From Saprospiraceae bacterium (GTDB taxonomy: Bacteria > Bacteroidota > Bacteroidia > Chitinophagales > Saprospiraceae), in contig CATQHI010000008.1 of NCBI GenBank assembly GCA_958295895.1, positions 1-64,000 on the forward strand: a stretch of DNA of 64,000 nucleotides. The letters are read 5' to 3'. The position numbers and the translations under genes are program-made. The notes beneath the pieces were generated by a model. It had not been told where the DNA came from and did not search any database. It saw only the letters and a program-made list of their open reading frames with translations. The stretch's first letter is position 1. Each line of letters starts with the position of its first letter. Below, piece by piece: positions 5,548 through 21,514 of this stretch.

Positions 5548-5621
5548 CTAGTCGGTTTTGCTGGCCGCAAAGTTCAAGCCCTAAGGTTAGGTCTACAAGA
5601 TGGGGTTGCTCGGATGCTTAC

Positions 5622-6147
5622 TGGTATCCTCCGCCTTAGCTGATGCCTCTATCACCTTATAATCCTCCTCATTGGGCTGTTGCGCTTCCTGTTTTGGCGG
5701 CCGCGGCGGCGGTACCTGATCACTGGGCCGGGCGCGGTGCTTGATGACCTTGAGCTCATGAGCCTGAGCGATCAGCATGTCGTTGACCGCTTTGCTGCCC
5801 TGCTCACCCAGTCGCTTGCGGATAGTAACAAAGAGGTGGGGCACAAACACGGGCTCGGCCTGAAAGCTACTCAACCCCACGAAGTACTGGGCGTAGATAT
5901 TCTCCTGGATGTACTCGATGGTCCGTTCGTCACTCAGGTTCTCGATGTGCTTGACCAGCAGGGTGCCCAGATCAACAGAAGGACGTCCTTCGGCCACGCT
6001 CATGCTACGCAGGAACACCGTAGCCATCTCGTCCCAGGGCACCAAATCGGCCATCCTGACCCAGCGGTTCTGGGGGCATAGGGCAGCGTCGAAAGGGGTG
6101 CGAAAAAGCTGAAGGCAGAGCTTGGAGGCGGGGGTGTGCTTGATCAT
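5622..6147 (-). pseudogene. Truncated DDE transposase (DUF772-type N-terminus)
   Basis: From ATG at 6147 the frame encodes the N-terminal part of an IS5/IS1182-like transposase. A NRWVRMADLVPWDEM stretch, GRPSVDLGTLLVKHIENLSD and the ENIYAQYFVGL motif are those of the DUF772 domain. A variable spacer follows (PPPRPPKQEAQQPNEED). The catalytic domain is missing because the IS66 end cuts the gene at 5621/5622; the final few residues are read from IS66 DNA. I could not find the missing 3' part on the other side of the IS66 element. Non-functional. Confidence 0.85.
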
Positions 6148-6397: not shown

Positions 6398-7456
6398 TTA
6401 TTCTCTCGAAGCACCCTCAGGTACCAGTTGGTTCATTTTCTTTGCCCAATTCTCCACTTCGGACGCAGTTGCCTCAACTACCTGACGTTGTACATCGAAG
6501 ATATACGGTTGACTAGGATGATCGATTACGTACTTAACTACATTGTAGTAATCTACGAGCGGCTCCATGTGTAGCCACTTCCGATTTTGTGCAATTATCG
6601 TCTGCTGCAAGTAAGTGTAGGATGATACGTACGGTTCAGAGATTTGTCCATCCACGCTAAACTGAAAGATATGATTTCCTCCCAATAAAAGGCCATCGTT
6701 CTGTAGGGCCAACCAAAGGGCGCATTTGTTCGGCATTAGCTTGCCTTGGTGGACCAAGTCTACCAGGATGGAGGTAATCTTTGGTTTCGTCGGATCTAGC
6801 GAGGTCGATTGCGTGTAGTGATGCAGCACGATGTCTAAGGGTTGCGTACCGTACATGTCAGTGACCCCGCCCAGCGCCTCACCGGGGAAGCGATCGTTCG
6901 CTACGAGATCCAGCACAATATCCATGTTGATGCTGTCGATGAATGCAATCGTATCCCCGTGCACGCTATATGAGCCGGGCTTTAAGCGGAAGTATTGGTC
7001 ATTTTGCTCCAACTGATAGAGGGTATCCCGTAAGCGATTATCCAGCGCCAGCGCCTTTTCGTTTTTATCGAGGAATAATTGCCATCGGGGGTCCGTCTGA
7101 TGCATACTGAACGGCTGATGCTCAACAAGGTATTCATTCTTGAGTCCCTTGCCGACTACTAGGTCTAGCAGCACGAAGAACGTATCTATTCGACCAAGCT
7201 CAGTAGCGAGCAGCAGACCGTTATGTATGTCTTTAATAAAGTTGCCGTCGGCTTGCAAGAGAATTTCGTAATACGCTGTTAAAGCTTCTAGCTGCTTGCC
7301 GGCGAGCAGGTGTTTCTCTGCTTTATGAATATTGTTCTGATAGTAAGCAAAGTTTCCAATTTGCGCCTGGAGGCTGATCGTAAAAGATGACAGCCAAAGG
7401 CCAAAGACTGTAAACATCTTAATATTCCCCTTTAAGGTCGATTTGTTATAAATCAT
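6398..7456 (-). CDS. Hypothetical secreted protein at the end of the RiPP maturase operon
   Basis: The 352-aa frame overlaps the end of the SPASM gene by 11 bases when started at 7456. A second ATG at 7417 is preceded by AAGGGGAA and begins directly at a good signal peptide (MFTVFGLWLSSFTISLQAQ), so 7417 is the more likely start. The exported part has an N-terminal helical TPR-like region (residues 30-120) and a conserved middle part (DSINM, RFPGE, GTQPLDIVLHHYTQ). It is a distant paralogue of the 121-1158 product. Its position suggests a link to the peptide product, for example immunity or a surface partner, but that is inference. 6148-6397 upstream of its stop holds nothing I recognise. Confidence 0.75.
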   Translation of the reverse strand: MIYNKSTLKGNIKMFTVFGLWLSSFTISLQAQIGNFAYYQNNIHKAEKHLLAGKQLEALTAYYEILLQADGNFIKDIHNGLLLATELGRIDTFFVLLDLVVGKGLKNEYLVEHQPFSMHQTDPRWQLFLDKNEKALALDNRLRDTLYQLEQNDQYFRLKPGSYSVHGDTIAFIDSINMDIVLDLVANDRFPGEALGGVTDMYGTQPLDIVLHHYTQSTSLDPTKPKITSILVDLVHQGKLMPNKCALWLALQNDGLLLGGNHIFQFSVDGQISEPYVSSYTYLQQTIIAQNRKWLHMEPLVDYYNVVKYVIDHPSQPYIFDVQRQVVEATASEVENWAKKMNQLVPEGASRE

Positions 7457-8474
7457 AGTACATCATTGTGAGTTCATTTGATATATTTCTCCAATTGCTC
7501 CATTCTCCTGAATAAGGATCATATCCACACTTAAGCGGTTTGCTGTTTGGCTCTTCTGGTTTATTTATGTATGCCCTACAATCAGTACAAATGTATCTAA
7601 ATTCACAGTCTCTACATATTTCAATGTCATCTTTTCGAATCGACGCAACCTCTTGAAAATGAGTCAACTTTATTATATCTTCAAAATAACTTTCTCCTAT
7701 TTTTCCATAGACCATGGGCATCGATGGACAGTTCCTTATACAACCCCGAACATCTATCGCCAATTTATTATACAAACAACTATTCGCATTCTTTGCTAAA
7801 GTTATAAATCTTCGTGTTGGCACGAAACCTTTCGATGAAATATTTCCACAAGACTTCATTGATAGAGGTGTATCCACATATTCTAAAACTCTTCCGTACT
7901 GATCAAAAGTACTTGAAAATTTACCTGAAGAAAAGAAGCATAGCCGGTAGATAGATCTAAATTCATCAAAAATATCTATCAACGGTTGTTCGTTACTATA
8001 AATAGCGCTACTTAATATTTCGAATGAAAGCTTCATATCTTGAAATTTCCTTATGAATTTTGAAATTTCTATGGTGTTAACTTCATCGTATAGCTGAATC
8101 TGAACGATATTGAAACCTGCCACATAGGCCGCTTCAATAAATTTTACGTAGCAGTCGTTTAAAGCAGTATATTTATCTAAGCAAATTATAATATCCCCAT
8201 TAGCCTCATGCCAATTCATTGAACGTTCTTTACTACGTAGAAACAGCGATGCATCTCTTTCATGAGCCTCGAAATGCATCCCTTCCTCTAAAAGAAAGTT
8301 ATTGAAAACATCCGAATCCGATGGGATTACTTTATTTGACAAATTAAAGCATATGGACTGTAAATAAGTATTCTCAAATCTATAAACCTTAGTTTTGTCT
8401 GTGTTTATAATGATGGAATGACTGGCTCCCTTAAAACAGAAAGTCGTACTGTATGGAATTATATTAATCATCAT
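7446..8474 (-). CDS. gwsS: Grasp-with-spasm system SPASM-domain peptide maturase
   Basis: The 342-aa product ends in a strong SPASM-type cysteine cluster (IEICRDCEFRYICTDCRAYI, then PLKCGYDPYSGEW), which matches the SPASM protein of grasp-with-spasm RiPP systems. An earlier Cys pair (CIRNCPSMPMVYGKIGE) is also SPASM-like. I see no CxxxCxxC radical-SAM motif in the N-terminal half, so it may bind auxiliary clusters without classic SAM chemistry. The ATG at 8474 overlaps the stop of the 56-aa gene, and its own end overlaps the secreted-protein gene. This gives a tightly coupled operon. Strongly AT-rich compared with the rest of the window, pointing to transfer. Confidence 0.88.
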   Translation of the reverse strand: MMINIIPYSTTFCFKGASHSIIINTDKTKVYRFENTYLQSICFNLSNKVIPSDSDVFNNFLLEEGMHFEAHERDASLFLRSKERSMNWHEANGDIIICLDKYTALNDCYVKFIEAAYVAGFNIVQIQLYDEVNTIEISKFIRKFQDMKLSFEILSSAIYSNEQPLIDIFDEFRSIYRLCFFSSGKFSSTFDQYGRVLEYVDTPLSMKSCGNISSKGFVPTRRFITLAKNANSCLYNKLAIDVRGCIRNCPSMPMVYGKIGESYFEDIIKLTHFQEVASIRKDDIEICRDCEFRYICTDCRAYINKPEEPNSKPLKCGYDPYSGEWSNWRNISNELTMMYYDL

Positions 8475-8634
8475 TCGTAATTTTGATAGTATTTACCGGC
8501 CTATAAGGTATAGGATATACAATCAGGTTTTCATCTAATACTGTCGCCCTTTTGACTCTTGCCTGGACTAACAACGCCTTCTCTTCATTCAACAAGAATG
8601 AATAATTCAGAGGTAAATTTTGATATTTTTTCAC
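8464..8634 (-). CDS. 56-aa small protein coupled between the ATP-grasp and SPASM genes
   Basis: A short frame starts with GTG at 8634 and encodes (M)KKYQNLPLNYSFLLNEEKA, continuing to a KITNDD end at 8464. The GTG overlaps the ATP-grasp TGA by four bases (GTGA). Its last codons overlap the two ATGs of the SPASM gene (ATGATGATTAA). Such overlaps on both sides strongly favour a translated gene. The peptide is not hydrophobic and has no signal; it has a helical charged middle (LNEEKALLVQARVKRATVL) and a strand-like end (ENLIVYPIPYRPVNTIKI). It could be a peptide-binding or docking partner of the maturases. I do not recognise the family. Confidence 0.7.
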   Translation of the reverse strand: MKKYQNLPLNYSFLLNEEKALLVQARVKRATVLDENLIVYPIPYRPVNTIKITNDD

Positions 8635-9581
8635 TTCATTGAAATTAATTGTTCTGCAATATTTCCATAGATGTCTATATGCCCATACGTATACATCATA
8701 TCAAATTGACCAACTGGATTTATTTCTAGAAACCACCAATTATCATCGCCGTCTAATAAAATATCTAATGATCCTGTCTGTAAATTCAAGCCATCCATTG
8801 TTAATAGAATCTTTTGTTCGACTTCGGTAGGAAGTTCGCAAATCGTATACCTATTATTCTGTCTATTCCTTATGTCAATATGCTTGTTCTCACTGTCATT
8901 AATGCAAGCTATTGCGTAAATTTTCGCCATAAATACAAAAACTCTGAATTCATACTTCACGTACACTCTATCTTGTAAAAGTGAATACCCATAGCAATTT
9001 GCAATTTTACCTGTTTCAACCTTATTTGTCTCGTGAGTACAAATACTTCCGTTTCGGTTGAGTACAAGTATATCTTGAATATTCTTAGTTATGAGTTCGC
9101 CTCGCCTGAATTCAGCTGCGTAATTACTTAAGTGTTCTCCTGAAGATATATACGTATTTGGTACCTTGAATCCCGCGGCGGTTGCAACTTTCAAGGCAAT
9201 TAGTTTATTTTGATTATAGTTTAATTGACTACCAATTGCCTTATCACCTAACAAGTAAAGGAAAAATTCCAGCAGGGTATTTGACTCTGATATTAAGTGA
9301 TCTTCGATCTGCTTAGCTACTTCTGGCTCGTCAAAAACCATATCAATATTATCGTACCTAAAGTCATAAAAGCCTCTTCGGAACCATATGGCATCTATCT
9401 GAGAAACAAAGTCTCCATTGCTTAATTCTATATCAATTTTATCGGCTCCAATATGTAATGATTTAATCGGCCGAACTAAAGCTTCGCCACAAACACTACG
9501 GTACTCGGCCCCTCTCGCATTCAGAACGGAGATGACCTTCTCTGCTGACATATCCCTTCCACAATGTACTACATAAATCAT
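8631..9581 (-). CDS. gwsG: Grasp-with-spasm system ATP-grasp peptide maturase
   Basis: The product (316 aa from ATG at 9581; TTG at 9587 is an alternative) is a RimK-like ATP-grasp ligase. The N-terminal part has an IDAIWFRRGFYDF stretch. The ATP-grasp fold follows, with NQNKLIALKVATAAGFKVPNT, a KYEFRVFVF strand, and the metal-binding end DILLDGDDNWWFLEINPVGQ. This class forms macrolactones or macrolactams between Asp/Glu side chains and Thr/Ser/Lys of a precursor (graspetides). The upstream gene is the precursor, so that should be its substrate. The downstream 56-aa gene and SPASM gene are translationally coupled to it. Confidence 0.9.
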   Translation of the reverse strand: MIYVVHCGRDMSAEKVISVLNARGAEYRSVCGEALVRPIKSLHIGADKIDIELSNGDFVSQIDAIWFRRGFYDFRYDNIDMVFDEPEVAKQIEDHLISESNTLLEFFLYLLGDKAIGSQLNYNQNKLIALKVATAAGFKVPNTYISSGEHLSNYAAEFRRGELITKNIQDILVLNRNGSICTHETNKVETGKIANCYGYSLLQDRVYVKYEFRVFVFMAKIYAIACINDSENKHIDIRNRQNNRYTICELPTEVEQKILLTMDGLNLQTGSLDILLDGDDNWWFLEINPVGQFDMMYTYGHIDIYGNIAEQLISMK

Positions 9582-9680
9582 ACACAAATGCTAACAGAGG
9601 TTTTTGTCTCAACGATAATACTGTCTAGCAGTGACAAGGCATACTATATATGCATACCTATGAAAACAAACAAGCAAATA

Positions 9681-9770
9681 GTGACAACTAGTTATAGTAC
9701 GTGCAGTTAAAAGTTAATATATTCGAATCAATTTCTAACTGTACGTACCATAACCATAGCTAGTCGTTAC
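9681..9770 (-). promoter_or_regulatory. Long imperfect inverted repeat between precursor and maturase genes
   Basis: The left arm 9681-9712 (GTGACAACTAG..AGTACGTGCAGTTA) pairs with the right arm 9732-9770 (TAACTGTACGTACC..CTAGTCGTTAC). There are a few mismatches and one 5-base bulge, and the loop is AT-rich. It lies directly after the precursor stop and about 100 bases before the ATP-grasp start. In the transcript it could be a partial terminator or RNA-processing stem that gives more precursor than enzyme mRNA. There is no U-tract, so a simple intrinsic terminator is less likely. Confidence 0.6.
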
Positions 9771-9771
9771 T

Positions 9772-10023
9772 TCATACCTGATAAGGATTTGATCCGTAGG
9801 GACCTAAAGGTGGAGTGGGAGGGCATCCTGTACTCTTGTCAGTGTATCTATGAAGAGTCATGGTATTATAACTAGTTCTTGTATCAGCCGAGTATGAGAA
9901 TATACCAACGTTTGGACCCCCGTCTGCAGTACCACCACCAGTTGGAGTACCACTACAAGTACCCCCATACAAACTTCCTGTAGTCACTATCTCATGAGGT
10001 TGAAAATCTAACTTCTTTTTCAT
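9772..10023 (-). CDS. Candidate RiPP precursor peptide (83 aa)
   Basis: From ATG at 10023 the peptide has a short leader, MKKKLDFQPHEIVTTGSLYG, ending in Gly-Gly at residues 20-21. The core then contains two Cys (23 and 67), many Thr/Ser/Gly and a Pro-rich end (GCPPTPPLGPYGSNPYQV). Three Asp (34, 47, 62) and many Thr are possible partners for ATP-grasp ester bonds, and the Cys and Tyr are possible SPASM targets. An upstream extension to 10059 has no leader-like features, so 10023 is chosen. It is the first gene before the ATP-grasp/SPASM pair. The Gly-Gly site matches cleavage by the C39 exporter at 18125-20320. Core boundaries are inferred. Confidence 0.75.
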   Translation of the reverse strand: MKKKLDFQPHEIVTTGSLYGGTCSGTPTGGGTADGGPNVGIFSYSADTRTSYNTMTLHRYTDKSTGCPPTPPLGPYGSNPYQV

Positions 10024-10056
10024 AACAAAGATGATTAAAGTGAATTGCCCCTGACA

Positions 10057-10064
10057 CAAATTTT
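10057..10064 (-). promoter_or_regulatory. Possible -7 box for the precursor gene
   Basis: On the minus strand AAAATTTG lies 33 bases before the precursor ATG; it differs from TAnnTTTG at one base. I see no clear -33 TTG. Weak. Confidence 0.3.
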
Positions 10065-10188
10065 TTATTAGAAAGCATGTTCACTGTGTTGCCTACTCTC
10101 TTTAGAATCCCGGTTTTCGACACACCCCGGACCGATCATCTAATCGATATAACAAACTTAGCTATCATCAAGGCAAAAATTTTACCCC

Positions 10189-10213
10189 CATCAAAAATTG
10201 TAGATATTTGATG
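10189..10213. repeat. Short AT-rich inverted repeat
   Basis: CATCAAA (10189-10195) and TTTGATG (10207-10213) form a 7-bp stem in the gene-free stretch 10065-10229, which otherwise shows nothing recognisable. Confidence 0.35.
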
Positions 10214-10229
10214 AGATAGTAGAATGAAC

Positions 10230-10258
10230 GTAAGTGTTTGAGAAACTATGTCTCGTTT
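10230..10258. repeat. IS66-like terminus
   Basis: GTAAG, GAG, AACTA and GTCTCGTTT occur at the same spacing as in the IS66 end at 10698-10726, with differences at about seven of 29 positions. It probably marks the end of another lost element. Confidence 0.4.
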
Positions 10259-10265
10259 CATACCG

Positions 10266-10462
10266 CTAGACATTTAATAAGTTGATGGATTGATAGCCCT
10301 TGTTACTTCGCCTAAGTTCTCGGCTCAGATAGCGGCAAAAGGCGAGTAGATCCTGAGTATGCTTCGCCAGGTTATCGATGCCATAGCGGAACACGTAGGT
10401 CGCCCGGCAGCGCCAGCCGGCTGAACCCTGCACCTTGAAGTTGACCCCTACACGTAGTGCTT
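10266..10462 (-). pseudogene. Transposase-like C-terminal remnant
   Basis: An open minus-strand frame without a start encodes VGVNFKVQGSAGWRCRATYV, then FRYGIDNLAKHTQDLLAFCR, and ends SNKGYQSINLLNV at 10266. It lies between an IS66-like end and a truncated IS3-type orfA, so it is most likely mobile-element debris. I cannot name the family. Confidence 0.35.
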
Positions 10463-10522
10463 GAGGCTTTCTAAGATGGTCTTTCCAACTGGGACAGAAA
10501 AACTTTGTAGATTCTTACGACC

Positions 10523-10678
10523 ATGGAAGCAAAAAAGTTAACAAAGACGGGTAAGCGTGCCTACCGCCGCTACGATGCCAACTTTAAGGCCGAAGCCGTC
10601 AAACAACTCGAGCGCGGCATGTCGGTGACCGAACTGGCGGGGTCGTTAGGGGTAAAGCCCAGCTTACTCCATAACTGA
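10523..10678 (+). pseudogene. Truncated IS3-type OrfA
   Basis: The 51-residue frame encodes MEAKKLTKTGKRAYRRYDAN and the OrfA helix-turn-helix (FKAEAVKQLERGMSVTELAG, then VKPSLLHN). It stops at TGA where the family has Trp: reading on gives KSQAKQR, as in HNWKSQAKQR. After a few codons it is cut by the IS66 end at 10698. Non-functional. Confidence 0.75.
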
Positions 10679-10697
10679 AAGTCTCAGGCCAAGCAAC

Positions 10698-11053
10698 GTA
10701 AGCATCCGAGCAACTACGTCTCGTTTAGATCCTGCGCCGCCGCCCACTGATCGGGCAGCAGCTCCCGCAGCCGGTTAACGGGGTGGTCGGGCAGACGGGC
10801 AAGCACATCGGTCAGCCACTCCCGGGGGTTGACCCCTAGATGCTGACAGCTACCGAAGAAAGAGTACATCATCGCCGCACGCTGCGCCCCGGCGTGGGAA
10901 CCGGCGAACAAGTAGTTCTTGCGGCTAAGGGCCAGGGGGCGGATCGAGTTTTCGATCAGGTTGTTGTCCAGTTCCAGCCGGCCGTCGTCGTTGAAGCAGG
11001 CGGCCAGTTTAGGCAGTTCGTGCTTAGCGTAGTGCAGGGCCTGACCGATATAA
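10698..11053 (-). pseudogene. IS66 transposase C-terminal fragment (second IS66 copy)
   Basis: The left end carries the same 17-bp terminal repeat as the first IS66 element. The fragment encodes the C-terminus of TnpC on the minus strand (YIGQALHYAKHELPKL, LDNNLIENSIRPLALSRKNY, AGAQRAAMMYSFF) and stops at 10714. Everything upstream is removed by the IS3-type element starting about 11054. Its sequence differs enough from the 3192-5621 copy (ending AAAQDLNET) to be a separate IS66 type. Confidence 0.85.
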
Positions 11054-11092
11054 GTAGGAGTAACCCTTAACTTTACTTCTAAACTTAGCACC

Positions 11093-11418
11093 ATGCGTAA
11101 GAGCAAATTCACCAAGACCCAGCAGCAGGCTATTCTAGCCCAGCACGACGCGGGCACCAGCGTAGCCGATCTGTGCCGCGAGCACCAGATCAGTGCCGCT
11201 ACCTTCTACAAATGGAAGAAGGGCCACCAGGACGACAGCAAAGCAGAAGAGCGTCGCCTAGCCGAGCTGGAACGGGACAACGCTACTTCACCGTAGGGCC
11301 CCTCCCCCATGCTTCGTGGAAGAAGATGTACGCCGAACTCAGTATGAATCACGAGATCCTGCAGGAAGGCTACTCGATGCTAAAAAAGTGGCAGGCCCAA
11401 GACGTCAAGAAGAAGTGA
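11093..11418 (+). pseudogene. IS3-type OrfA, interrupted by a short insertion
   Basis: OrfA begins MRKSKFTKTQQQAILAQHDA with the HTH (SVADLCREHQISAATFYKWK) and reaches LAELERDN. Then about 32 foreign bases (about 11283-11314) bring a stop at 11294. The expected continuation (WKKMYAELSMNHEILQEGYS) is in another frame and ends at 11418. The inserted bases resemble a dispersed repeat found at 25972, 41511 and 54711 (shared core AGGGCCCCTCCCCC). The slippery heptamer A AAA AAG at 11382-11388 is correctly phased for the -1 frameshift that makes the OrfAB fusion. Confidence 0.75.
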
Positions 11419-12260
11419 TCGATGCGATCTGGCAGCCGGACAGTCCGAAGAGTGTCCGTCAGTGCTGCCGCGTCTTGGGCTTTCGTCGGCAGACCTACTA
11501 TGCAAGAAAGCGGGGCCACCGCCCTGAGGTAGCCGATGAAGCGTTGGCGGCCGTACTACGCCGAGCCTGCGAGGAGCACCCCTACTGGGGCTTCTGGAAG
11601 ATCTTTCACTGGCTTCGGCGTAAGCCCGAGCACACCTTCAATCATAAGCGGATGTACCGTATCTGGAAGCGGGAGGGGCTCAACCTGCGCCGGCCACCAA
11701 AGCGCAAGCGTATCCACCGCGAGTACCAGGCCCTGCTGGCTCCCGAGGGCATCAACGAGGGCTGGGCCATGGACTTTGTCAGCGACTGGGTAGTGGGCCC
11801 CGGCCAACAGTCCGTGCGGGTCATCAACATCATGGACGAGGGCTCGCGGCGGGCCCTGTGGACGGAAGCCCATACCAGCATCTCGGCCCGTAAGTTGATC
11901 GAGGTGCTCGATCAGGTGGTCGAGGTGCGAGGTCGACCCGGCTACATCCGCTGTGATAACGGACCGGAGTTTATCAGCCACCAACTCAAGCACTGGGCTA
12001 CCCGACAGGGGGTAGAGCTACGCTTTATCCAGCCCGGTAAGCCGACGCAGAACGGGCTAATCGAACGGCTCAACAAGACCCTACGGGTGGAATGCCTAGA
12101 TTTGACGTGGTTCACGACCCTGGAGGAGCTCAACGAAGAGATACAGCACTGGTCGCTGACCTACAACCTGGACCGCCCCCACGCGAGCCTGGGCCACCAA
12201 ACACCCGCCGAACATGAAATCGAACATCAGAAATTCTACTATCTACCGGTAGCGGCTTAG
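11316..12260 (+). CDS. IS3-family transposase OrfB (DDE integrase)
   Basis: The catalytic part is intact: an N-terminal HTH_21 region (HPYWGFWKIFHWLRRK), then the rve domain with D in WAMDFVSDW, D in YIRCDNGPEF and E in NGLIERLNK, followed by the usual YNLDRPHASLGHQTP end. The frame is open from 11316, but translation is expected to enter it by -1 frameshifting at 11382-11388 from orfA, so residues before about 11389 are probably not native. Because orfA is broken, the element may depend on a related copy in trans. Confidence 0.88.
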   Translation: MEEDVRRTQYESRDPAGRLLDAKKVAGPRRQEEVIDAIWQPDSPKSVRQCCRVLGFRRQTYYARKRGHRPEVADEALAAVLRRACEEHPYWGFWKIFHWLRRKPEHTFNHKRMYRIWKREGLNLRRPPKRKRIHREYQALLAPEGINEGWAMDFVSDWVVGPGQQSVRVINIMDEGSRRALWTEAHTSISARKLIEVLDQVVEVRGRPGYIRCDNGPEFISHQLKHWATRQGVELRFIQPGKPTQNGLIERLNKTLRVECLDLTWFTTLEELNEEIQHWSLTYNLDRPHASLGHQTPAEHEIEHQKFYYLPVAA

Positions 12261-12271
12261 GGAAAGCCTAC

Positions 12272-12511
12272 AGGGATACCACTTTAAATAGCGGTTAACG
12301 TAAGTCCAAACGTCTTCGTGGTTGGTGTGAACAAATGAGCACCATACTTTGAGACTAGAATGCCGTTGTCGTCGATGTAATCGTAGCAGTTGCCAGCAAT
12401 GTGGTTACGCTTTTCTATGATAATTACTTGTTTACCACTACTAGCGTAGCGTTCTGCCAGCACAGCTCCACTGATACCTGCACCGATAATTATAATTTCT
12501 GCCTTATTCAA
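12272..12511 (-). pseudogene. glf: UDP-galactopyranose mutase, truncated and frameshifted
   Basis: The minus-strand frame from TTG at 12511 has the FAD-binding N-terminus of Glf (AEIIIIGAGISGAVLAERYA, EKRNHIAGNCYDY, SKYGAHLF). One base has been lost at about 12327-12333. Shifting the frame there restores HTNHEDVWTYVNRY, exactly the expected Glf sequence. After LKWYP the gene is cut by the IS3 element at 12271. Only about 75 of the usual 370 residues remain. Glf makes UDP-galactofuranose for surface polysaccharide, so this is a relic of such a locus. 12512-12703 upstream shows nothing. Confidence 0.85.
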
Positions 12512-12703
12512 TGGGTGAACTGTTTTGTTATAAGGAATTGCGTTCAGATCACTGTATCATCCAAAAAAGTATTTTTCAAGGTGGCGTGATGATCGCGTAT
12601 AATTTTACTTGTAAAGACAATCTTGGTGGACAGAGTAAAGCCCAACTTCACGCTTCATATTCAGTAGTACATACAACCTGCTTGATACAATACTTAATAA
12701 CAG

Positions 12704-14569
12704 CTAACTATGATAATCAATTATTACTTCTCTGAAAAATGAAACCAGACGATCAACATGATGGTCGAATGTAAATAAGTGTCTATTTCTCCAAACGTTT
12801 TTCCTAATTTGCTTCATTCTTAGCTTGTCATTTAATTTTTGATATAAATCATCGAAGCCGTCAAATAATACCCCTATATCTAAGTTATTAATCAAGGTCT
12901 GCGTAGCGACATGATGTCCATTATTAGATCTTTGTAATAACGGTACCCCAGAAACAGCAAGCGTAGCTATACGAGCAGGATAATTCAAATCATCCCACGA
13001 AGCCTTTATTATTTCACCATCGTTATCGCTTTTAAAAATGTGAAGCCATCCAGCGTCATATTGGGAAAATTCCTTAACCCAATCTTTCTGAATACAGTTG
13101 GGGTGAAAGTGCAAATAATCATTAGCACTGCCACCAATTTTGCTGAGCCATTCGTGATGCATGTCGTAGTACCTATTACCATAGAAATGTAAGTGTATTT
13201 TCCTCTCCACTATTTCCTTTACAATGGAAGTCTGAAGCCCGATCAATCGACCTGCAACTAATGTATGAATTTCCTCGCCTCTAGTAGATAACAGATCTGA
13301 CTTTTCCTGTACAAACCATCTACTGCTAGGCAAATCACCATCTAACACTATAGATGGGGTTTTTCTACCCTCCACAATAGACTGACTAAACCATTCTTTA
13401 ACAAGTGAATTTATGTATATTTGACCACTCGAAAAGCTATATAAATCAATTAGCTTACTCCAAATTCCCAATACTCTACAAACAAAAGGTCCTTCCTTGA
13501 AGTGCCATACAAAAGGTATATCGATATCACTCATCATTACTTCGTGAGCCAGTGGAACGGCTTGAAAATTTAATAGCGCGTATATTATATCTGGCTGTAT
13601 CTCATCAATTGTTTTCCGCCAGTTCTTTTTCGGAACGTCTTGTATGTTGCCGAAAGGCAGCGGACCAATCGCATTATAGTGATTAGGATTATCTATCCAC
13701 AACCCGTACAACTGGTGCCCAGCTTCCTCAAGAGAGTAAATTCTATCTTCATTGTATGCCAATTCTCCAACCACCAATATTTTTAATCTATCCTTAATAC
13801 CATTAGTTCTTATCCCCCGCAGATGACCGTACTGTTCAATCTCGTTAATACACTTACCAACTGAAGGCTGAAAGTTAATTGGACTATCTATCTGATAGGT
13901 TGCTTTAAATTTATTTAACCCTCCCCCAAACGTTTCTAATATAGTTCTGTGCCTTTGCTCTGAATGAAAGGTCCATTCGCATGTAACTTTCTTAGTCTCG
14001 ATATAGCAATGGTCATGTATTATTGATCCCCAGAACATATCAAATAGGCTATCAGTGACTATCTCTCTTCTTTCTCTCCATAGACATTCCGTTCTCCTGT
14101 GTAAAACCTGTACTAGCTGAACGTCGTACCCATCGATCTGACCTTCAGCAGATCGGCGAAAGCTACCACTAAAGTTATTCACTTGGTGATATCTTATCCC
14201 GGAATAAGCGACCACAAGATTATCGTCTTTTTTAAGGATATTTAGAAGTGATTCCAAGTGATCTTTAAAATATATGTCATCCGAAGGCAGGTACGCTATC
14301 AGATCGTATTTGGCATTCTTCAAGCCAATATTTAGGCTAGCTCCGAGCCCGAAGTTTTTTGAGTTGGTAATGCATCGTATGTTCTGTTCATTCATAAAAT
14401 GACCTATAATGTACTCAGTATCATCAACAGATGCATCATTAACAATTATAAGTTCCCACTTACAGTGCGTTTGCAACTTCAAACTTTGTATAGCCCGTGC
14501 AATAAATTTGGCCTGATTATAGGTAGGCATGATAACTGAAATTCCTCCGCAGGACATGGCATTTTTCAT
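12704..14569 (-). CDS. Two-domain glycosyltransferase (GT2 plus GT1/GT4-like)
   Basis: The 621-aa product starts with a GT-A family 2 domain (GGISVIMPTYNQAKFIARAI, VNDASVDDTEYI, YLPSDDIYF with the DxD-like acidic motif), about residues 8-220. From about residue 270 a second, GT-B-like part begins (RLKILVVGELAYNEDRIYSL, PDIIYALLN) and ends with a glycosyltransferase-type tail (YPARIATLAVSGVPLLQR). It probably adds sugars to a surface polysaccharide or glycoprotein. It lies just upstream of the broken glf on the same strand and is AT-rich. The alternative ATG at 14557 would give MSCGGIS. Catalytic specificity cannot be read from sequence. Confidence 0.82.
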   Translation of the reverse strand: MKNAMSCGGISVIMPTYNQAKFIARAIQSLKLQTHCKWELIIVNDASVDDTEYIIGHFMNEQNIRCITNSKNFGLGASLNIGLKNAKYDLIAYLPSDDIYFKDHLESLLNILKKDDNLVVAYSGIRYHQVNNFSGSFRRSAEGQIDGYDVQLVQVLHRRTECLWRERREIVTDSLFDMFWGSIIHDHCYIETKKVTCEWTFHSEQRHRTILETFGGGLNKFKATYQIDSPINFQPSVGKCINEIEQYGHLRGIRTNGIKDRLKILVVGELAYNEDRIYSLEEAGHQLYGLWIDNPNHYNAIGPLPFGNIQDVPKKNWRKTIDEIQPDIIYALLNFQAVPLAHEVMMSDIDIPFVWHFKEGPFVCRVLGIWSKLIDLYSFSSGQIYINSLVKEWFSQSIVEGRKTPSIVLDGDLPSSRWFVQEKSDLLSTRGEEIHTLVAGRLIGLQTSIVKEIVERKIHLHFYGNRYYDMHHEWLSKIGGSANDYLHFHPNCIQKDWVKEFSQYDAGWLHIFKSDNDGEIIKASWDDLNYPARIATLAVSGVPLLQRSNNGHHVATQTLINNLDIGVLFDGFDDLYQKLNDKLRMKQIRKNVWRNRHLFTFDHHVDRLVSFFREVIIDYHS

Positions 14570-14964
14570 AATTTTAAATTATTTATAATAATACATTAAT
14601 AATATTAAATTATTCGACAACATTGATACGTCCCTCATCACCTAACCTTAGCTATCAATACGAACGCAATATAAATTACTGAAATTTGGTACGTATAAGC
14701 TCGATTCACCAAATGCATGATTGAATAGCGTAAATATTGATGCATTTAAGGACAACCTACGGATAAATTAATTCCCATATCATATACAGCCACAACATAC
14801 AATAGACGGCATACAATAGAATCAATCGTTATGATAAGTGAGCTATATATAATTTCCTTTCCACACGGTCACTAATCATACGTAATCTTGCCCTCTTGGT
14901 TTATATTTATCTCCAAGGCTATAACTCTATTTAAACTGCTAAATGTTGAAAATTTAAGTCTTAT
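14570..14964. other. Gene-free AT-rich stretch
   Basis: About 395 bases without a convincing frame. A short stop-free minus-strand stretch (LNRVIALEININQEGKITYD) directly after the next gene's stop has no start codon. No tRNA or clear terminator was seen. Confidence 0.4.
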
Positions 14965-16344
14965 TTACACTACAGCACCCCCCCCTTGATCAGTTATCCA
15001 TTCATCTGGTTGAACAAAGCGAAGCAGCCCATCATTTAGAAGAATATATAATAAATATTTGATTATGTATTTCTCCAGAGTATCGCTCTGGATATTCATC
15101 CTGTGCTGACAGTGCTCTATGAACTCACTTACAGTAAGTGGATTCTCAAATAACAGCAGCGCACCGTCAATACTATCTGAATTCATGTTAAATTCGACCA
15201 TATCCGAATTATTATTTACATATACCAGAGTCTTTGAACCCTCTTTAAGGCTTGAATTAATAATCCTACTTGAATTAAATTGTAGAACGCAACCCATAAA
15301 ATACTCTGAATCATGGCCATATATCTCGTATATAAATCTCCGAACAGACTCATCAATATCAATAGATAGGCATAAGTCACGATTAGAATCATTCGATTTA
15401 ACCTTATTCACTAGACTACTACCATTAACAGCGTTATTTTGCTTACTAGGTATTTTATTAAAGTATGTATTAGATGAGTGAGATAGAATGCCTAATTTTG
15501 ACTGAATGTACTCATGATAGAAATGTACATATCTTCTCACCACTGGATTACGTTTTGTATTACCGACAAAGTGTATAAATTTGTCAAGGTGGGGAGCTAA
15601 GTGAAATCTTATTACCTGAGCAAAATCGGGATCTACATTATCAATCAAAGTGTCAATCTTAAAATCTTTCGACCTTAAGAACCAGTAAAGACTAAATTGT
15701 TCAATAAATTGATTAACTATGTTAGATTCATACTGAATGAGGGTGCTTTCATTGTTACGAACAAATTTGTCAATTGCAACATAAAATTCATCAAGAACAT
15801 CTACGTCACAAATTGCAAATACACCGAGATTAACAGCTATAGAAACATTATTACTGAGTCCCGCTAATATGAAATCAGGGATATCAATCAGTAAGGACTT
15901 TGCATTCTGAAAAAAGAAGTCGTAAGATGGAAAATTAATTTCTATGTTTTGAACTACGACGGATTTCCCGTCAGGCTCATTAATCTTCTCAAACAGCAGT
16001 ATGTCATTGTCGAAGTGTATAAACCCGCTCTTCTGACTACATAATGTTAAAATTTTACCGTAGGACCAAAAATTTTGGGGAGACTTAAGACTCAGATTTG
16101 AAAGCTCCAAAGATGTTTGAAGCTGTAGAAATTTACATTCTTCGATCTCTTTAAGTAGATTAAATCCCGTTTCATCTACAACTACCTCACAACTCTTACC
16201 ATATACACTGGAGATAGTATAATTACTAACATGTAGCAATTTAAGATAGTCACTCAATTCACCTGAGCAACTATCAACACCAAGCTGTGGATAGCTGTTA
16301 CATACTTCCATCGGTTTGGTCCAAAGCGATTGAATAACCCTCAT
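14965..16344 (-). CDS. DUF6734-like protein (459 aa)
   Basis: The start MRVIQSLWTKPMEVC, the helical/strand pattern in residues 20-110 and the FIHFDNDILLFEKI stretch (a DxD-like acidic site) resemble DUF6734, a Bacteroidota family with a glycosyltransferase-A-like look. That assignment is from memory of the pattern, not a search. The C-terminal 150 residues (about 310-459) are less typical and may be a separate small domain: VYVNNNSDMVEFNMNSDSI, then a helical part that looks like a PqqD-type or winged fold (NPLTVSEFIEHCQHRMNI). An 8-base C/G homopolymer at 14978-14985 encodes three Gly next to the end and could shift the last codons. The gene is AT-rich and lies upstream of the exporter operon's end. 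Role in the RiPP system is possible but unproven. Confidence 0.6.
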   Translation of the reverse strand: MRVIQSLWTKPMEVCNSYPQLGVDSCSGELSDYLKLLHVSNYTISSVYGKSCEVVVDETGFNLLKEIEECKFLQLQTSLELSNLSLKSPQNFWSYGKILTLCSQKSGFIHFDNDILLFEKINEPDGKSVVVQNIEINFPSYDFFFQNAKSLLIDIPDFILAGLSNNVSIAVNLGVFAICDVDVLDEFYVAIDKFVRNNESTLIQYESNIVNQFIEQFSLYWFLRSKDFKIDTLIDNVDPDFAQVIRFHLAPHLDKFIHFVGNTKRNPVVRRYVHFYHEYIQSKLGILSHSSNTYFNKIPSKQNNAVNGSSLVNKVKSNDSNRDLCLSIDIDESVRRFIYEIYGHDSEYFMGCVLQFNSSRIINSSLKEGSKTLVYVNNNSDMVEFNMNSDSIDGALLLFENPLTVSEFIEHCQHRMNIQSDTLEKYIIKYLLYILLNDGLLRFVQPDEWITDQGGGAVV

Positions 16345-16462
16345 TTGCTTATTTTATTGCGGCTGAAGTATATACCGCAGTTATACTAATACGCAGTATC
16401 CAAATTCAAATATTATATGTTTGTATAAATTTTAATCACTTACTTAAACTTGAGTCTTTAAC

Positions 16463-16819
16463 CTAATCTAAAGTAGGTATCTGATATGTATCACGAAAAT
16501 CGCCTTTGTTGGTGCAAGTATTCTGCCCCCAGCAGCATTCTAAAATAATTTTTTGGCCACCGCGCAACCGATCCAAATTCTCTACCTCGATCACGATGTT
16601 CCAATCAAAAAGCACTCGATTACGATAGACATAAGAACCCCTCCCGCGATCATAGCAAATCTCCGCCCCAAAGTCCTCCAATTCCTGTTTTAGGTTAGTT
16701 ATCGTCCGCACACTCACCCCAAGCCGCTCCGCTAACTCCTCCCGATTGCCCGTTGCCTTCCGGCGTATCAGCGCATCCAACCGGTCCAGTTGCCGCAGTC
16801 GTTCGATTAGGTAGCTCAT
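16463..16819 (-). CDS. HTH-domain protein with Gly-Gly/Cys tail
   Basis: The 118-aa product has a winged HTH of the DeoR/HTH_11 type at residues 1-60 (RLDALIRRKATGNREELAER, LGVSVRTITNLKQELEDFGA). After YDRGRGSYVYRN the tail contains LRGG and then Cys residues (ECCWGQNTCTN). It starts 3 bases after the HlyD stop and is the last gene of the exporter operon. Similar HTH proteins sit beside peptide-export genes in Bacteroidota, so it may regulate this cluster. The tail looks superficially like a peptide core, but an HTH leader would be unusual. Confidence 0.75.
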   Translation of the reverse strand: MSYLIERLRQLDRLDALIRRKATGNREELAERLGVSVRTITNLKQELEDFGAEICYDRGRGSYVYRNRVLFDWNIVIEVENLDRLRGGQKIILECCWGQNTCTNKGDFRDTYQIPTLD

Positions 16820-16822
16820 AGG

Positions 16823-18121
16823 TCAACGATTTTCACTCAGGTTAAAAAATTGGTCCAGCAGCCGCTCCAGCAGCGTCCGCTCTTCTGTGATGATGCGGGC
16901 CGTGCCCGTCAGGTTATACTGAAAGGACAGCAGCCGCCCGTAAGACGACACCAAACTATCCGGAAGCAATACCGTAGCCTGCCGTCCGTAGCGCTGTTCT
17001 GCGTCCGGTAAGGCAACTGGATCGATGGTGAGCACTTCTCCAAACAGCTGCCCAAACTCCCGTGACGGGTAAGCATCCAACGCCAGCAACACTTCATCCC
17101 CCAGCGCTACCCTACCCTCTCCCTCCGGTGGTAGCCGGAGCCGGGCCACTTTTCGCGATCCGCCCCGTGCCGGTATGATGAAGCCCAGCGGTACTGAGGA
17201 TGACACTAATGCCCCCTCCCTCACCTCCGGTAGCCAATCGATTGTACCCGCCTCGCGTGCGATCACAAATTGATCAAGTGCAAACCGGTCAAGCGTAGCT
17301 ACTAGTACCTGTCGTTGCAGGTTCCACCGGCGATCAAACTCCGCAAGCCTCTCGCGGTGATCCAGCTCAAGTTGCAGAATCTGCTGACGGAGTTGGTTCA
17401 CCCGCAGCGAGTTTTGTACATCTCCCGCCACCAGCACTTCCCGCTGCCGTAGTGCACCAATGGTTTGTTCCTCGATAGCCTCCGCTTCCTGCTTACTGAT
17501 AAGCTCCTGCTCCTCCATCGTACGCGCCCGTTCGACGTTCATCCGTTTGTAGCCGAGCTCCCGGTCATACAGGTCCACCTGTCGTTGCAATGAGCCACTC
17601 AAACGGCCCGCCTCTTCAACCTCCCGCTCTAGCGCGGCTACTTGCTCCGTTACGCCATTAGTTTGCAGATAGCTCTGCCGGCCCTTACGTATACCCTGTA
17701 GTTCACTTACCACTGGCGCGATAACGGAAGGATAGTTCTGATCGGTAGCGGACGTCTCGTCGCTGTCTTCTTCCTCGAGCCAGGCACGCAATTGCCTAGT
17801 AGTTCGCCAGTTCCCATCGCTACGGAACACCATTAGTGTATCGCCCACCGCTATGGGTTGCCGGTCTTCTACCAGTATAGCTTCCACATAGTTGCCCGCA
17901 CCTGCGTGTACCGCCAAAGGAACCGTCTCCGTTTGCAGCACGAAGGGCGCCTCCACCCGCTCCGGATACCGAATAACGGCCGCTAGCCCCAGTACCACCG
18001 CTACCGTCAGCGCGATCACGGTCAGTCCCGAACGCAGCAGCCAGCCCGGCGGCCGACCCAGCATGTCCTGGATGGCGGAGTCGCGGTACTGCGCGTCGGA
18101 TATGAGGGTAGTCTCTGGCAT
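16823..18121 (-). CDS. HlyD-family periplasmic adaptor
   Basis: The 432-aa product has a cytoplasmic start, one TM segment (GLTVIALTVAVVLGLAAVI, about residues 32-50), then the split biotinyl-lipoyl/β-barrel domain (VEAILVEDRQPIAVGDTLMV) around a long α-hairpin (about residues 145-260, with EEAGRLSGSLQRQVDLYDRE). A C-terminal β-rich part follows (EGRVALGDEVLLALDAYPSR). It would join the inner-membrane ABC exporter to an outer-membrane channel. It lies 3 bases from both neighbours in one operon: exporter, adaptor, HTH protein. Its GC content is higher than that of the RiPP genes. Confidence 0.9.
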   Translation of the reverse strand: MPETTLISDAQYRDSAIQDMLGRPPGWLLRSGLTVIALTVAVVLGLAAVIRYPERVEAPFVLQTETVPLAVHAGAGNYVEAILVEDRQPIAVGDTLMVFRSDGNWRTTRQLRAWLEEEDSDETSATDQNYPSVIAPVVSELQGIRKGRQSYLQTNGVTEQVAALEREVEEAGRLSGSLQRQVDLYDRELGYKRMNVERARTMEEQELISKQEAEAIEEQTIGALRQREVLVAGDVQNSLRVNQLRQQILQLELDHRERLAEFDRRWNLQRQVLVATLDRFALDQFVIAREAGTIDWLPEVREGALVSSSVPLGFIIPARGGSRKVARLRLPPEGEGRVALGDEVLLALDAYPSREFGQLFGEVLTIDPVALPDAEQRYGRQATVLLPDSLVSSYGRLLSFQYNLTGTARIITEERTLLERLLDQFFNLSENR

Positions 18122-18124
18122 GGC

Positions 18125-20320
18125 TTAGTTTCCGAGTTCGAGTTGGTTCTTGACTAGGGTGTAGTACTGGCCCCGTGCGGCGGTGAGCTCCTGGTGAGTC
18201 CCTTCTTCCACTACTCGGCCCGCCTCGAGCACCACGATCTTATCGGCGTGAGAAACCGTAGAGAGCCGGTGCGCAACCACCACAACGGTCTTGCCCGCTA
18301 AGAACTCGTCCAGCCGGTTTACGATGGTCCGCTCGTTATTGGCATCGAGGGAGTTGGTCGCCTCGTCCAGAAAGACGTAGCTCGGATCCTTATATACCGC
18401 CCGGGCAATGAGGAGTCGTTGCCGCTGCCCCTGACTCACGCCGTTGCCCCGCGCCCCGATCATGGTATTCACCCCCAGCGGTAACTCCTGAACAAAGTCC
18501 TCGATGTTAGCCACGTGCAGCGCCTCATTGAGCCGGTCCGTCTGCGGCCAGTCATCGCTCTCACTCACATTGTTGGCAATCGTATCGGAGAAGATGAAGC
18601 CCTCCTGCATCACCACCCCGCAGTGGTCACGCCAGGCCTGCTGATCGAACTGACCGACGTCGCGCTGCCCCACCGTGATCTTCCCCTTCGTTGGCGGATA
18701 AAAGCCCAGCAGTAGCTTCAGCAGGGTCGTTTTACCACTACCACTCGTTCCCACGATGGCCGTCACCTTACCCTGCGGTATGACCAGGTCAACCTCCTGC
18801 AATACCTCCTCTGCCAGCGCATTGTACCGAAAACTCACCCTATGAAACTCAAGGTCCCCCTCCCTGGGCGGGGCCGCAGGTGCGGTGGACGTAGAAGCAA
18901 GCGCATCCTCCTCCGCGACCGCATGTATCTCCCCGAGTCGGTCCAGACTAATCTTGGCATCCTGCCCGGAACGAACGAACTGGATCATCTGCTCCAGCGG
19001 ACCGTTCAGCTGTCCTATTATATACTGTATCGCCAGCATCATACCGAGCGTCAGCTCCCCCCGGATCACGCCGGTAGCCGCGATGACGGTGATGACAATG
19101 TTCTTAGTCTGGTTGATGGTAGAGCCACCCGCCTCCTGCCACTGCCCGATCCGCAGGGCGCTCATCTGTACCCGGAAGAGCTTCGCCTGGATTTCGGCCC
19201 ACCGCCACCGCCGCTTCAGCTGACTGCCCTGGAGCTTGATCTCCGTCATGCCCTGTACGATCTCGATCAGGGAGTCCTGGGTAGCAGAGTTTTGCTGGAA
19301 GGCGCGGTAGTCGATCTCTTTGCGCAGCCGGAGGAAGAAGGCGATCCAGCCGAAGTACAGCACGGAAGCACCTAGAAAGATGGCGAAAATCGTGGTAGAA
19401 TAATAGAGCAGGACGACGCTAAAGGCCAGCAAATTGAAGATCGCCAGAATGGCCCCCAGCGTGGACTGGGTAAGGAAGGCCTCGATCCTGCGGTGGTCGC
19501 CAATGCGCTGTAGCAGATCGCCCGTCATCTTCGTATCGAAGTAGCCTAGGGGCAGCCGCATCAACTTCACTAGAAAATCACTAATCAGTGCTACGTTAAG
19601 CCGGATGCCAATGTGCAACAGAATCCAGCTCTGAATAAAACGCACCCCGGTGGAGGTCAGAAACAGCATCAACTGACCGATCAGAATCAGGTAGATGAAG
19701 CCGATATCCTGATTGACGATGCCCGTATCGACGATAGCCTGCGTCAGGAAGGGGAACAGCAGGGCCAGTACGGAGCTCACCGCCAGACCGATACCAAGCT
19801 GCCAGCCCAGTTTGTGGTAGGGCCGTAGGTAGTTCAGCACGAACGACAGACTCAACTTGTCGCTCGGCGGCTCTTCGGAGGTATAAAAAGACGGGGTAGT
19901 TTCGACGATAAGCGCAATGCCCTTCCCGTTATCACTCTCCCACCCCCGTAAGAAATCTTGCACCGGCAGCTTGTGCTTCCCATCGGCGGGATCCGAAATC
20001 CATACGTACTTCTTACTCGCACGGTACACTACGACAAAGTGATTCTGGTTCCAGTGCACGATGGCGGGAAAGGGTGCTCGGAGAAGGTCCGGTTGACTGC
20101 CTCGCGCGCTGAATTGCACCTTCACGGCCATCGTCCGTAGACCCACCCGCTCGGCGGCCTTGCTGATACCCTTTAGGCTCACCCCCTCCCGACTAATGAA
20201 AGAGACCGACCGCAACCAGGGCAGCGGATAGTAGCGCCCGTGATACTTGAGCACCATCTGTAGACAGGCCGGACCGCAGTCCATACTATCCAGTTGGGGG
20301 TAGAAGGGGAAAGCTCCCAC
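18125..20320 (-). CDS. Peptidase-containing ABC exporter (C39 peptidase, PCAT)
   Basis: The 731-aa product combines three parts. Residues 1-140 are a C39 bacteriocin-processing peptidase with the catalytic Cys15 in MDCGPACLQMVL, His94 in NQNHFVVVYR and Asp110 in WISDPADGKHKL. An exporter TM domain spans about residues 165-430. An ABC ATPase follows with Walker A GTSGSGKTT, signature VSQGQRQR, Walker B YVFLDEATNSLD and the H-loop AHRLST. Such proteins cut leaders after Gly-Gly and export the core. The only Gly-Gly precursor visible is at 9772-10023. Start is GTG at 20320. The linker between TM and ATPase domains contains a copy of the 18-nt element (18866-18883), read as TAPAAPP. Confidence 0.93.
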   Translation of the reverse strand: MGAFPFYPQLDSMDCGPACLQMVLKYHGRYYPLPWLRSVSFISREGVSLKGISKAAERVGLRTMAVKVQFSARGSQPDLLRAPFPAIVHWNQNHFVVVYRASKKYVWISDPADGKHKLPVQDFLRGWESDNGKGIALIVETTPSFYTSEEPPSDKLSLSFVLNYLRPYHKLGWQLGIGLAVSSVLALLFPFLTQAIVDTGIVNQDIGFIYLILIGQLMLFLTSTGVRFIQSWILLHIGIRLNVALISDFLVKLMRLPLGYFDTKMTGDLLQRIGDHRRIEAFLTQSTLGAILAIFNLLAFSVVLLYYSTTIFAIFLGASVLYFGWIAFFLRLRKEIDYRAFQQNSATQDSLIEIVQGMTEIKLQGSQLKRRWRWAEIQAKLFRVQMSALRIGQWQEAGGSTINQTKNIVITVIAATGVIRGELTLGMMLAIQYIIGQLNGPLEQMIQFVRSGQDAKISLDRLGEIHAVAEEDALASTSTAPAAPPREGDLEFHRVSFRYNALAEEVLQEVDLVIPQGKVTAIVGTSGSGKTTLLKLLLGFYPPTKGKITVGQRDVGQFDQQAWRDHCGVVMQEGFIFSDTIANNVSESDDWPQTDRLNEALHVANIEDFVQELPLGVNTMIGARGNGVSQGQRQRLLIARAVYKDPSYVFLDEATNSLDANNERTIVNRLDEFLAGKTVVVVAHRLSTVSHADKIVVLEAGRVVEEGTHQELTAARGQYYTLVKNQLELGN
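18866..18883 (-). repeat. 18-nt GC-rich dispersed element, site 4 (inside coding sequence)
   Basis: GGGCGGGGCCGCAGGTGC lies in the variable linker just before the ATPase domain of the exporter, a place that tolerates insertion. Confidence 0.6.
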
Positions 20321-21395: not shown

Positions 21396-21446
21396 GGAAT
21401 GTAAAGATTGGGGCGGGCGGCAAAGATGGCACCAAGCCTACCACTA

Positions 21447-21464: not shown

Positions 21465-21514
21465 AACAAATTTGACGTTTGACCATTATCTTATTTACGA
21501 AATAAACCACTTTT

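What the first reader, a model, noticed from the sequence alone, without database searches (positions are those of the whole stretch)
7446..10023. AT-rich grasp-with-spasm RiPP operon with its own precursor
Seen: an 83-aa peptide with a leader-like start and Gly-Gly, then ATP-grasp and SPASM enzymes with clear family motifs, all on the minus strand with tight overlaps. Known: grasp-with-spasm systems pair these two enzymes to modify a small peptide. Inference: the peptide at 9772-10023 is the substrate, and its Thr/Asp/Cys-rich core is an unusual target that I do not recognise. The cluster differs strongly from surrounding base composition.
Basis: partly seen in the sequence, partly recalled or inferred. 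Interest (0 to 1): 0.8.

Follow-up and report, generated by a model that had tools for sequence, protein, structure and literature searches.

The report
Graspetide operon with conserved core motif
A bacterium, probably of the genus Neolewinella, carries a small set of genes that most likely make a secreted, ring-bearing peptide; the kind of system is known, but its peptide belongs to a group sharing a short motif that I did not find described, and a nearby regulator carries what looks like an export signal.

Summary
This is the Bacteroidota "branch 5" graspetide architecture of Makarova 2022 (PMC8939145). Both enzymes hit the grasp-with-spasm profiles but fall below NCBI's cut-offs; the ligase keeps all 20 invariant columns of a 15-row alignment.

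The core is not an orphan. A profile of 17 motif-bearing precursors from other loci ranks it first of 567 window ORFs (E 8e-7). [WYF]-S-x-D occurs at 16 of 22 loci of its ligase clade that have a precursor candidate, against 4 of 56 elsewhere. With three Asp and no Glu, at most three side-chain rings are expected. The SPASM family has no CxxxCxxC motif (0 of 88).

Side lead: a winged-helix protein (16463-16819) beside the HlyD/C39-exporter genes ends in a leader-like GG. In Saprospiraceae 30 of 41 GG forms adjoin such genes, against 4 of 46 without GG; a wider sample did not confirm this (6 of 13 against 2 of 8).

The parts
9772..10023 (-). precursor peptide, 83 aa; leader to GG at residues 20-21, 62-aa core with TGGG and YSAD (core residues 23-26)
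   Evidence: first of 567 window ORFs with a 17-precursor profile, E 8.3e-7; no NCBIfam or Pfam hit
8631..9581 (-). GwsG-like graspetide ATP-grasp ligase, 316 aa
   Evidence: TIGR04192 E 1.8e-42, below cut-off; all 20 invariant columns of A1 kept; A1 profile hits solved graspetide ligases
8464..8634 (-). LPL-like small protein, 56 aa, GTG start, between ligase and SPASM gene
   Evidence: small ORF at this place in 77 of 84 other ligase-SPASM pairs; profile ranks it first of 165 window ORFs but E only 0.21; sequence holds LPL (NLPLNY)
7446..8474 (-). GwsS-like SPASM protein, 342 aa; no CxxxCxxC; eight invariant Cys
   Evidence: TIGR04193 E 1.2e-48, below cut-off
6398..7456 (-). secreted cluster-23/DUF6624-like protein, 352 aa
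   Evidence: phmmer to the same-place gene of L092, E 1.5e-24; invariant D, Q, R, D, E, H, R kept; family profile against DUF6624-bearing proteins, prob 98.6
16463..16819 (-). winged-helix (HTH_11) protein with C-terminal leader-like GG (LDRLRGGQ), 3 bp from HlyD gene
   Evidence: Pfam HTH_11 E 5e-6 over cut-off
16823..18121 (-). HlyD-type adaptor, candidate exporter part
   Evidence: TIGR01843 E 1.9e-16, below cut-off
18125..20320 (-). C39-peptidase ABC exporter, candidate leader-removing exporter
   Evidence: Pfam Peptidase_C39 E 8.2e-33, ABC_membrane, ABC_tran
12704..14569 (-). family-2 glycosyltransferase; membership of the cluster unproven
   Evidence: Pfam Glycos_transf_2 E 1.1e-31
14965..16344 (-). 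DUF6734 protein; membership of the cluster unproven
   Evidence: Pfam DUF6734 E 4.8e-34; beside a gws locus in none of six other genomes that hold both
11316..12260 (+). IS3-family transposase between the peptide gene and the upstream AT-rich genes
   Evidence: NF033516 209 bits, over cut-off

Best explanation
This is a branch-5 (grasp-with-spasm-like) graspetide operon. The ATP-grasp ligase joins Ser/Thr hydroxyls (or the single core Lys) of the GG-leader precursor to the side chains of its Asp residues, losing water and closing rings. The likeliest site is the conserved aromatic-Ser-x-Asp element (YSAD); at most three side-chain rings are expected, because the core has three Asp (TAD, YSAD, YTD) and no Glu. 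The SPASM protein, which lacks a radical-SAM cluster motif, and the LPL protein act as substrate-docking or scaffold partners rather than as a radical enzyme. A C39 exporter, probably the one at 18125-20320 with its HlyD adaptor, cuts after GG and exports the product; the secreted cluster-23 protein acts outside the cytoplasm. Shown: gene content, enzyme families, kept catalytic columns, clade-linked core motif. Inferred: ring sites, roles of SPASM, LPL and cluster-23 proteins, and use of this exporter.
For: Profiles. Ligase: 20 of 20 invariant columns kept; profile matches six solved ATP-grasp sequences, among them AMdnB and CdnC. Gene order ligase-small ORF-SPASM in 77 of 84 other pairs. Core: [WYF]SxD in 14 of 19 unique precursors beside the best ligase relatives (shuffle mean 0.6, 0 of 2000), 5 of 48 and 1 of 35 beside weaker ones; 12 of 17 after removing loci where I first saw it; 16 of 22 against 4 of 56 loci by clade, p 1.4e-8. 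Window core against L098 and L094 cores: z 7.2 and 6.4, 0 of 200 shuffles each. YSAD starts 22 residues into the core, as in five other clade cores. SPASM: 0 of 88 with CxxxCxxC.
Against: Both enzymes are below the curated cut-offs. The precursor has no recognisable relative in 20 other genomes of the genus. The profile was built from precursors chosen for the motif. The clade has support 83/95 with an unsettled bootstrap, and L098, the best core match, lies outside it. 6 of 22 clade loci with a candidate lack the motif. The exporter's best relatives in the genus (78% identical, G116 and G479) show that this exporter also exists apart from this operon, and IS3 plus other genes separate the two here. 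No product, expression or enzyme data.
Confidence: 0.72

Rival explanations
1. The SPASM protein is a true catalyst (electron transfer or radical chemistry with a non-standard cluster) that adds a second modification, for example at the two core Cys, as Makarova et al. suggest for branch 5 (thioethers).
For: PMC8939145 (sections read, passages) treats the SPASM protein as a radical-SAM enzyme; eight Cys are invariant in 48 rows, so clusters are probably kept; the window core has two Cys.
Against: No CxxxCxxC in the first 180 residues of 88 family members; the model (pLDDT 86.3) matches no solved structure at E 0.001 or better.
Confidence: 0.2
2. The operon is a decaying, non-functional remnant trapped between insertion sequences.
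For: IS3 at 11316-12260, an IS5-type fragment at 5593-6147 and a truncated UDP-galactopyranose mutase at 12284-12511; the genome's second gws locus (L036) has a SPASM gene whose C-terminal CxxC cysteines are gone (seen).
Against: All five window genes are open and keep their invariant residues; the precursor fits the profile of other loci.
Confidence: 0.12
3. Glycosyltransferase and DUF6734 genes upstream belong to the pathway and glycosylate the peptide.
For: Same strand, same low GC (0.38 and 0.35), between exporter and peptide genes; Pfam hits.
Against: DUF6734 in 12 of 298 family genomes; 7 of the 12 also hold a gws hit, but only in the window genome on one contig; neither protein has a relative of this kind near the 93 other gws loci searched, save one weak glycosyltransferase hit in L148.
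Confidence: 0.1

Closest known systems
Branch-5 graspetide loci of Bacteroidota (Makarova et al. 2022, PMC8939145)
   Same: ATP-grasp ligase, GG precursor upstream, LPL protein directly upstream of the SPASM gene, cluster-23 family protein, C39 exporter and HlyD
   Different: clade-linked [ST]GxG and [WYF]SxD core that I did not find in the parts read; divergent ligase; exporter genes separated by AT-rich genes and IS3; the SPASM family is called radical SAM there, but lacks the motif here
Grasp-with-spasm system of NCBIfam (TIGR04192, TIGR04193)
   Same: both profiles hit over nearly their whole length
   Different: both below curated cut-offs
Graspetide group 14 of Carter et al. 2026 (PMC13097080)
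   Same: SPASM protein co-occurs with the ligase
   Different: the sections seen give no core motif; membership not tested
Microviridin-type and chryseoviridin ligases (MdnB, CdnC)
   Same: ATP-grasp fold family; the profile hits solved structures 7m4s and 7mgv
   Different: precursors with GG leader and few acids; SPASM and LPL partners

Membership tests
Graspetide ATP-grasp ligases | ATP-grasp catalytic residues kept | tested here: met
   20 of 20 invariant columns of A1; TIGR04192, 04187, 04184, 04185 hits
Grasp-with-spasm equivalogs (TIGR04192/TIGR04193) | score above NCBI's curated cut-offs | tested here: not met
   145.8 of 230 and 166.3 of 175 bits; so not filed as these equivalogs
Branch-5 loci (PMC8939145) | SPASM gene with a small LPL gene directly upstream | tested here: met
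   position and LPL letters; the profile ranks it first of 165 window ORFs, though E is 0.21
Branch-5 loci (PMC8939145) | cluster-23 family gene | tested here: inconclusive
   related to same-place genes and to DUF6624 proteins; the published cluster-23 alignment was not available, so the name rests on description
Branch-5 loci (PMC8939145) | ligase falls in branch 5 of the published ATP-grasp tree | not tested
   the published tree was not available
Graspetides | side-chain ester or amide rings in the product | not testable with these tools
   needs mass spectrometry
Radical-SAM/SPASM enzymes | CxxxCxxC motif binding the SAM cluster | tested here: not met
   0 of 88 family members, window included
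SPASM domain | C-terminal cysteine set | tested here: met
   TIGR04085 hit at 25.5 of 27 bits; eight Cys invariant in 48 rows; Pfam SPASM hits 27 of 48 members but not the window's

The most novel reading that the evidence does not exclude
Beside Bacteroidota C39 exporters stands a family of small winged-helix regulators that end in a C39 leader-like GG (window: 16463-16819). The exporter's peptidase would bind or cut the regulator at its GG, leaving the DNA-binding part in the cell and releasing the variable tail, so that transcription of the peptide cluster is coupled to export. Tails of only 1-3 residues in some members would then favour docking or cutting over a secreted signal as the common function.
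Probability: 0.3. Interest if true: 0.75.

Novelty: new variant of a known kind. Interest (0 to 1): 0.5.

Why it matters
Branch-5 graspetides are described as having very diverse, hard-to-align precursors (PMC8939145). A core motif that follows one ligase clade gives a direct prediction of the crosslinked residues and a set of loci in which to test it. The absence of the radical-SAM motif in the whole SPASM family changes what one should assay: a docking partner rather than a radical catalyst. If the regulator lead holds, it would be a way of coupling transcription to export that I did not find described in the searches made.

Tried and rejected
Glycosylated product: DUF6734 is not linked to gws loci elsewhere. 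A single ORF search for relatives of the window ligase in genome contigs found none; an alignment query did. Precursor search by tblastn in 21 genomes of the genus found only itself; all other matches had E 0.09 or worse. Family profiles gave nothing for the precursor or the LPL gene. Foldseek with the SPASM model gave no match at E 0.001 or better; the best rows are partial barrels. Profile search of solved structures with the SPASM alignment: none. A Bacteroidota-type promoter pattern on the minus strand of 9001-21500 gave no match, and no IS3 terminal repeats of 13 of 16 bases were found. The regulator-exporter link was tested in a wider phylum sample and was not significant there: 6 of 13 GG forms against 2 of 8 others, p 0.40. 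That the regulator is itself a peptide precursor is not favoured, because some tails after GG are 1-3 residues (L165, L173, L177, L214). In one search the leader filter dropped the window's own precursor (its ORF there starts at an upstream TTG); I added it by hand and kept it out of the counts (16 of 22, 4 of 56). Some of the filter's candidates are doubtful ORFs (for example for L113 and L073) and were counted as lacking the motif.
Full report
WHAT IS THERE. On the minus strand lie, in order of transcription, a GG-leader peptide (10023-9772), an ATP-grasp ligase (9581-8631), a 56-aa GTG-started small protein (8634-8464), a SPASM protein (8474-7446) and a 352-aa protein with a signal-like start (7456-6398). 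After the peptide the genes overlap by 4, 11 and 11 bp; the peptide is 190 bp from the ligase. GC of these genes is 0.33-0.47 against 0.60-0.62 in the flanks measured. The AT-rich stretch continues, beyond a GC-rich IS3 copy (11316-12260), through a truncated UDP-galactopyranose mutase, a family-2 glycosyltransferase and a DUF6734 protein. Then follow, at 0.49-0.58 GC, a winged-helix protein, a HlyD-type adaptor and a C39-peptidase ABC exporter, all on the same strand.

HOST. One genome of the same genus (G473) has a contig of 264750 bases bearing a hit that the named collection gives as Neolewinella lacunae NZ_JACSIT010000153.1, also 264750 bases.

ENZYMES. TIGR04192 (ligase, E 1.8e-42, 145.8 bits of 230 needed) and TIGR04193 (SPASM, E 1.2e-48, 166.3 of 175) are the best NCBIfam hits, both below the cut-offs. 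In a 15-row alignment the window ligase holds all 20 invariant columns. That alignment's profile finds six solved sequences, including AMdnB (7m4s) and CdnC (7mgv). TIGR04192 is found at E 0.001 in 44 of 298 family genomes, over its cut-off in 20 (one of 14 control genomes also rang, below the cut-off).

SMALL PROTEIN. In 84 other ligase-to-SPASM pairs (duplicate loci included), 77 have a small ORF between the two genes (72 unique); 47 of the 72 have P[LFVIYA]x[YFH]. A profile of the 72 ranks the window's ORF first of 165 window ORFs, with E only 0.21. The window protein reads NLPLNY. Makarova et al. 2022 describe exactly such LPL proteins, always directly upstream of the SPASM gene, and suggest a PqqD-like chaperone role (PMC8939145; passages, sections 6 part 1 and 7).

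SPASM PROTEIN. Of 88 members of at least 300 aa (window included) none has CxxxCxxC in its first 180 residues; 78 have a C-terminal CxxC-type set. Eight Cys are invariant in 48 rows. An AlphaFold model (mean pLDDT 86.3, pTM 0.82) has strands and helices at the N-terminus, a few beta-alpha units, then the SPASM part; Foldseek finds no solved match at E 0.001 or better. I read it as a docking partner; that is inference. PMC8939145 treats it as a radical-SAM enzyme; Carter et al. 2026 (PMC13097080; abstract, passages, section 7) call it a SPASM-domain protein found with all of their group 14.

352-AA PROTEIN. It matches the gene at the same kind of locus in L092 (E 1.5e-24), keeps the invariant D, Q, R, D, E, H and R of a 10-row alignment, and the alignment matches three DUF6624-type proteins from other gws loci at probability 98.6 (DUF6624 hits in two of the three were tested). 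Pfam itself gives the window protein no DUF6624 hit. This fits the secreted cluster-23 family of PMC8939145, but that alignment was not available to me.

PRECURSOR. No family hit, and no relative in 20 other genomes of the genus. From 80 named loci and other fetched ones I collected 102 unique GG-leader candidates beside ligases other than the window's. [WYF]SxD is in 14 of 19 beside the best ligase relatives (shuffle mean 0.6; 0 of 2000 shuffles), 5 of 48 beside middling ones (mean 1.2; 16 of 2000) and 1 of 35 beside the weakest (mean 1.0). I had first seen the motif in L067, L068 and L072; without these it is 12 of 17. In a 93-row ligase tree the window falls in a 26-row group (support 83/95, bootstrap not settled) and pairs with L067 (99/92). 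In that group, without the window, 16 of the 22 loci with a candidate have the motif, against 4 of 56 outside (p 1.4e-8). [ST]GxG is also enriched in the group's 25 unique cores (11; shuffle mean 2.8; 0 of 2000), less so outside (11 of 80; mean 6.6; 126 of 2000). A profile of 17 motif-bearing precursors ranks the window peptide first of 567 ORFs, E 8.3e-7, over GG, TGGG and YSAD; the training set was chosen for the motif, so this is not wholly independent. The window core is closest to those of L098 (z 7.2) and L094 (z 6.4), 0 of 200 shuffles each. L098's ligase lies outside the group, so the link between motif and clade is not strict.

MECHANISM. The ligase family makes esters and amides between side chains (established knowledge of graspetides). 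The window core offers 11 Thr, 6 Ser and 1 Lys as donors, and only three acids, all Asp, each next to or two residues after a Thr or Ser (TAD, YSAD, YTD). I therefore expect at most three losses of 18 Da, with YSAD the likeliest site. GG and the C39 exporter genes suggest cleavage after GG. Whether the exporter at 18125-20320 serves this operon is not shown: the best relatives in the genus (78% identity; G116 and G479) indicate a standing exporter, G116's own gws locus lies on another contig, and IS3 plus other genes lie between here. For support, HTH and exporter genes stand close upstream of precursor and ligase in other loci (L021; L070; L072).

REGULATOR LEAD. The 118-aa protein at 16463-16819 matches Pfam HTH_11 over its cut-off; the model has a confident winged helix and a disordered tail; the nearest solved folds are DNA-binding regulators such as NiaR and BirA, none at E 0.001 or better. 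In a 10-row alignment GG is present in 9. Among the 87 listed Saprospiraceae homologues down to E 2.1e-15 (three of them in the model, one being the window), 41 have GG after the wing and 30 of these lie within 300 bp, same strand, of a C39-exporter or HlyD gene, against 4 of 46 without GG (p 4.4e-10). Two of the 41 (L223, L234) have the GG inside the domain; moving them gives p 2.6e-11. In 21 loci of a phylum-wide sample the split was 6 of 13 against 2 of 8, p 0.40; the exporter probe was the window's own, so other exporters could be missed. The GG-leader model TIGR04149 hits residues 76-104 only weakly (E 0.1), and the precursor profile puts this ORF second of 567, E 0.48. A HetC paper (PMC10986499, passages) proposes, without a known substrate, that a C39 exporter's cut could leave an N-terminal part to act on a regulator. 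Searches of the held library (listings, with passages of PMC10352776 and PMC10986499) did not show such an HTH-GG family; the library lacks most subscription journals.

NOVELTY. The architecture is known (PMC8939145). The clade-linked core and the missing radical-SAM motif make this a new variant of a known kind. The exact term grasp-with-spasm is in no held paper, which reflects the library. My claim that the motif is undescribed rests and the parts of the two graspetide papers named above; their supplements were not available.

Noticed in passing
window 16463-16819 and loci L157-L264: Winged-helix proteins with a C-terminal leader-like GG beside C39/HlyD exporter genes; strong in Saprospiraceae, not significant in a wider sample.
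   Followed up: partly
L159, L162, L166, L172 (rows): The variable tails after GG in several HTH-GG proteins share a short hydrophobic stretch ending in FCS or LCS.
   Followed up: no
L036 6163-7317 (G000:C25): The genome's second gws locus has two acid-rich GG precursors, and a SPASM gene whose C-terminal CxxC cysteines are absent.
   Followed up: no
window 121-1158: A second cluster-23-like protein, probability 97.4 against the family profile, about 5 kb downstream of the operon.
   Followed up: partly
window 12284-12511: Start of a UDP-galactopyranose mutase gene cut off next to the IS3 copy.
   Followed up: no
window 16463-16819: GC falls from 0.53 before to 0.37 after the GG codons of the HTH gene, so the border of the AT-rich stretch lies near or inside this gene.
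   Followed up: no
G000:C5:23628-24533 (L003, L039): A third ATP-grasp of the graspetide type in this genome, with the microviridin-like ending FLEINPAGQW.
   Followed up: no
L076 3835-5221 and L037 10930-11602: In same-genus relatives the gws ligase lies beside a run of tandem small peptides of another type (MSKQIT / MSNQLN starts).
   Followed up: no
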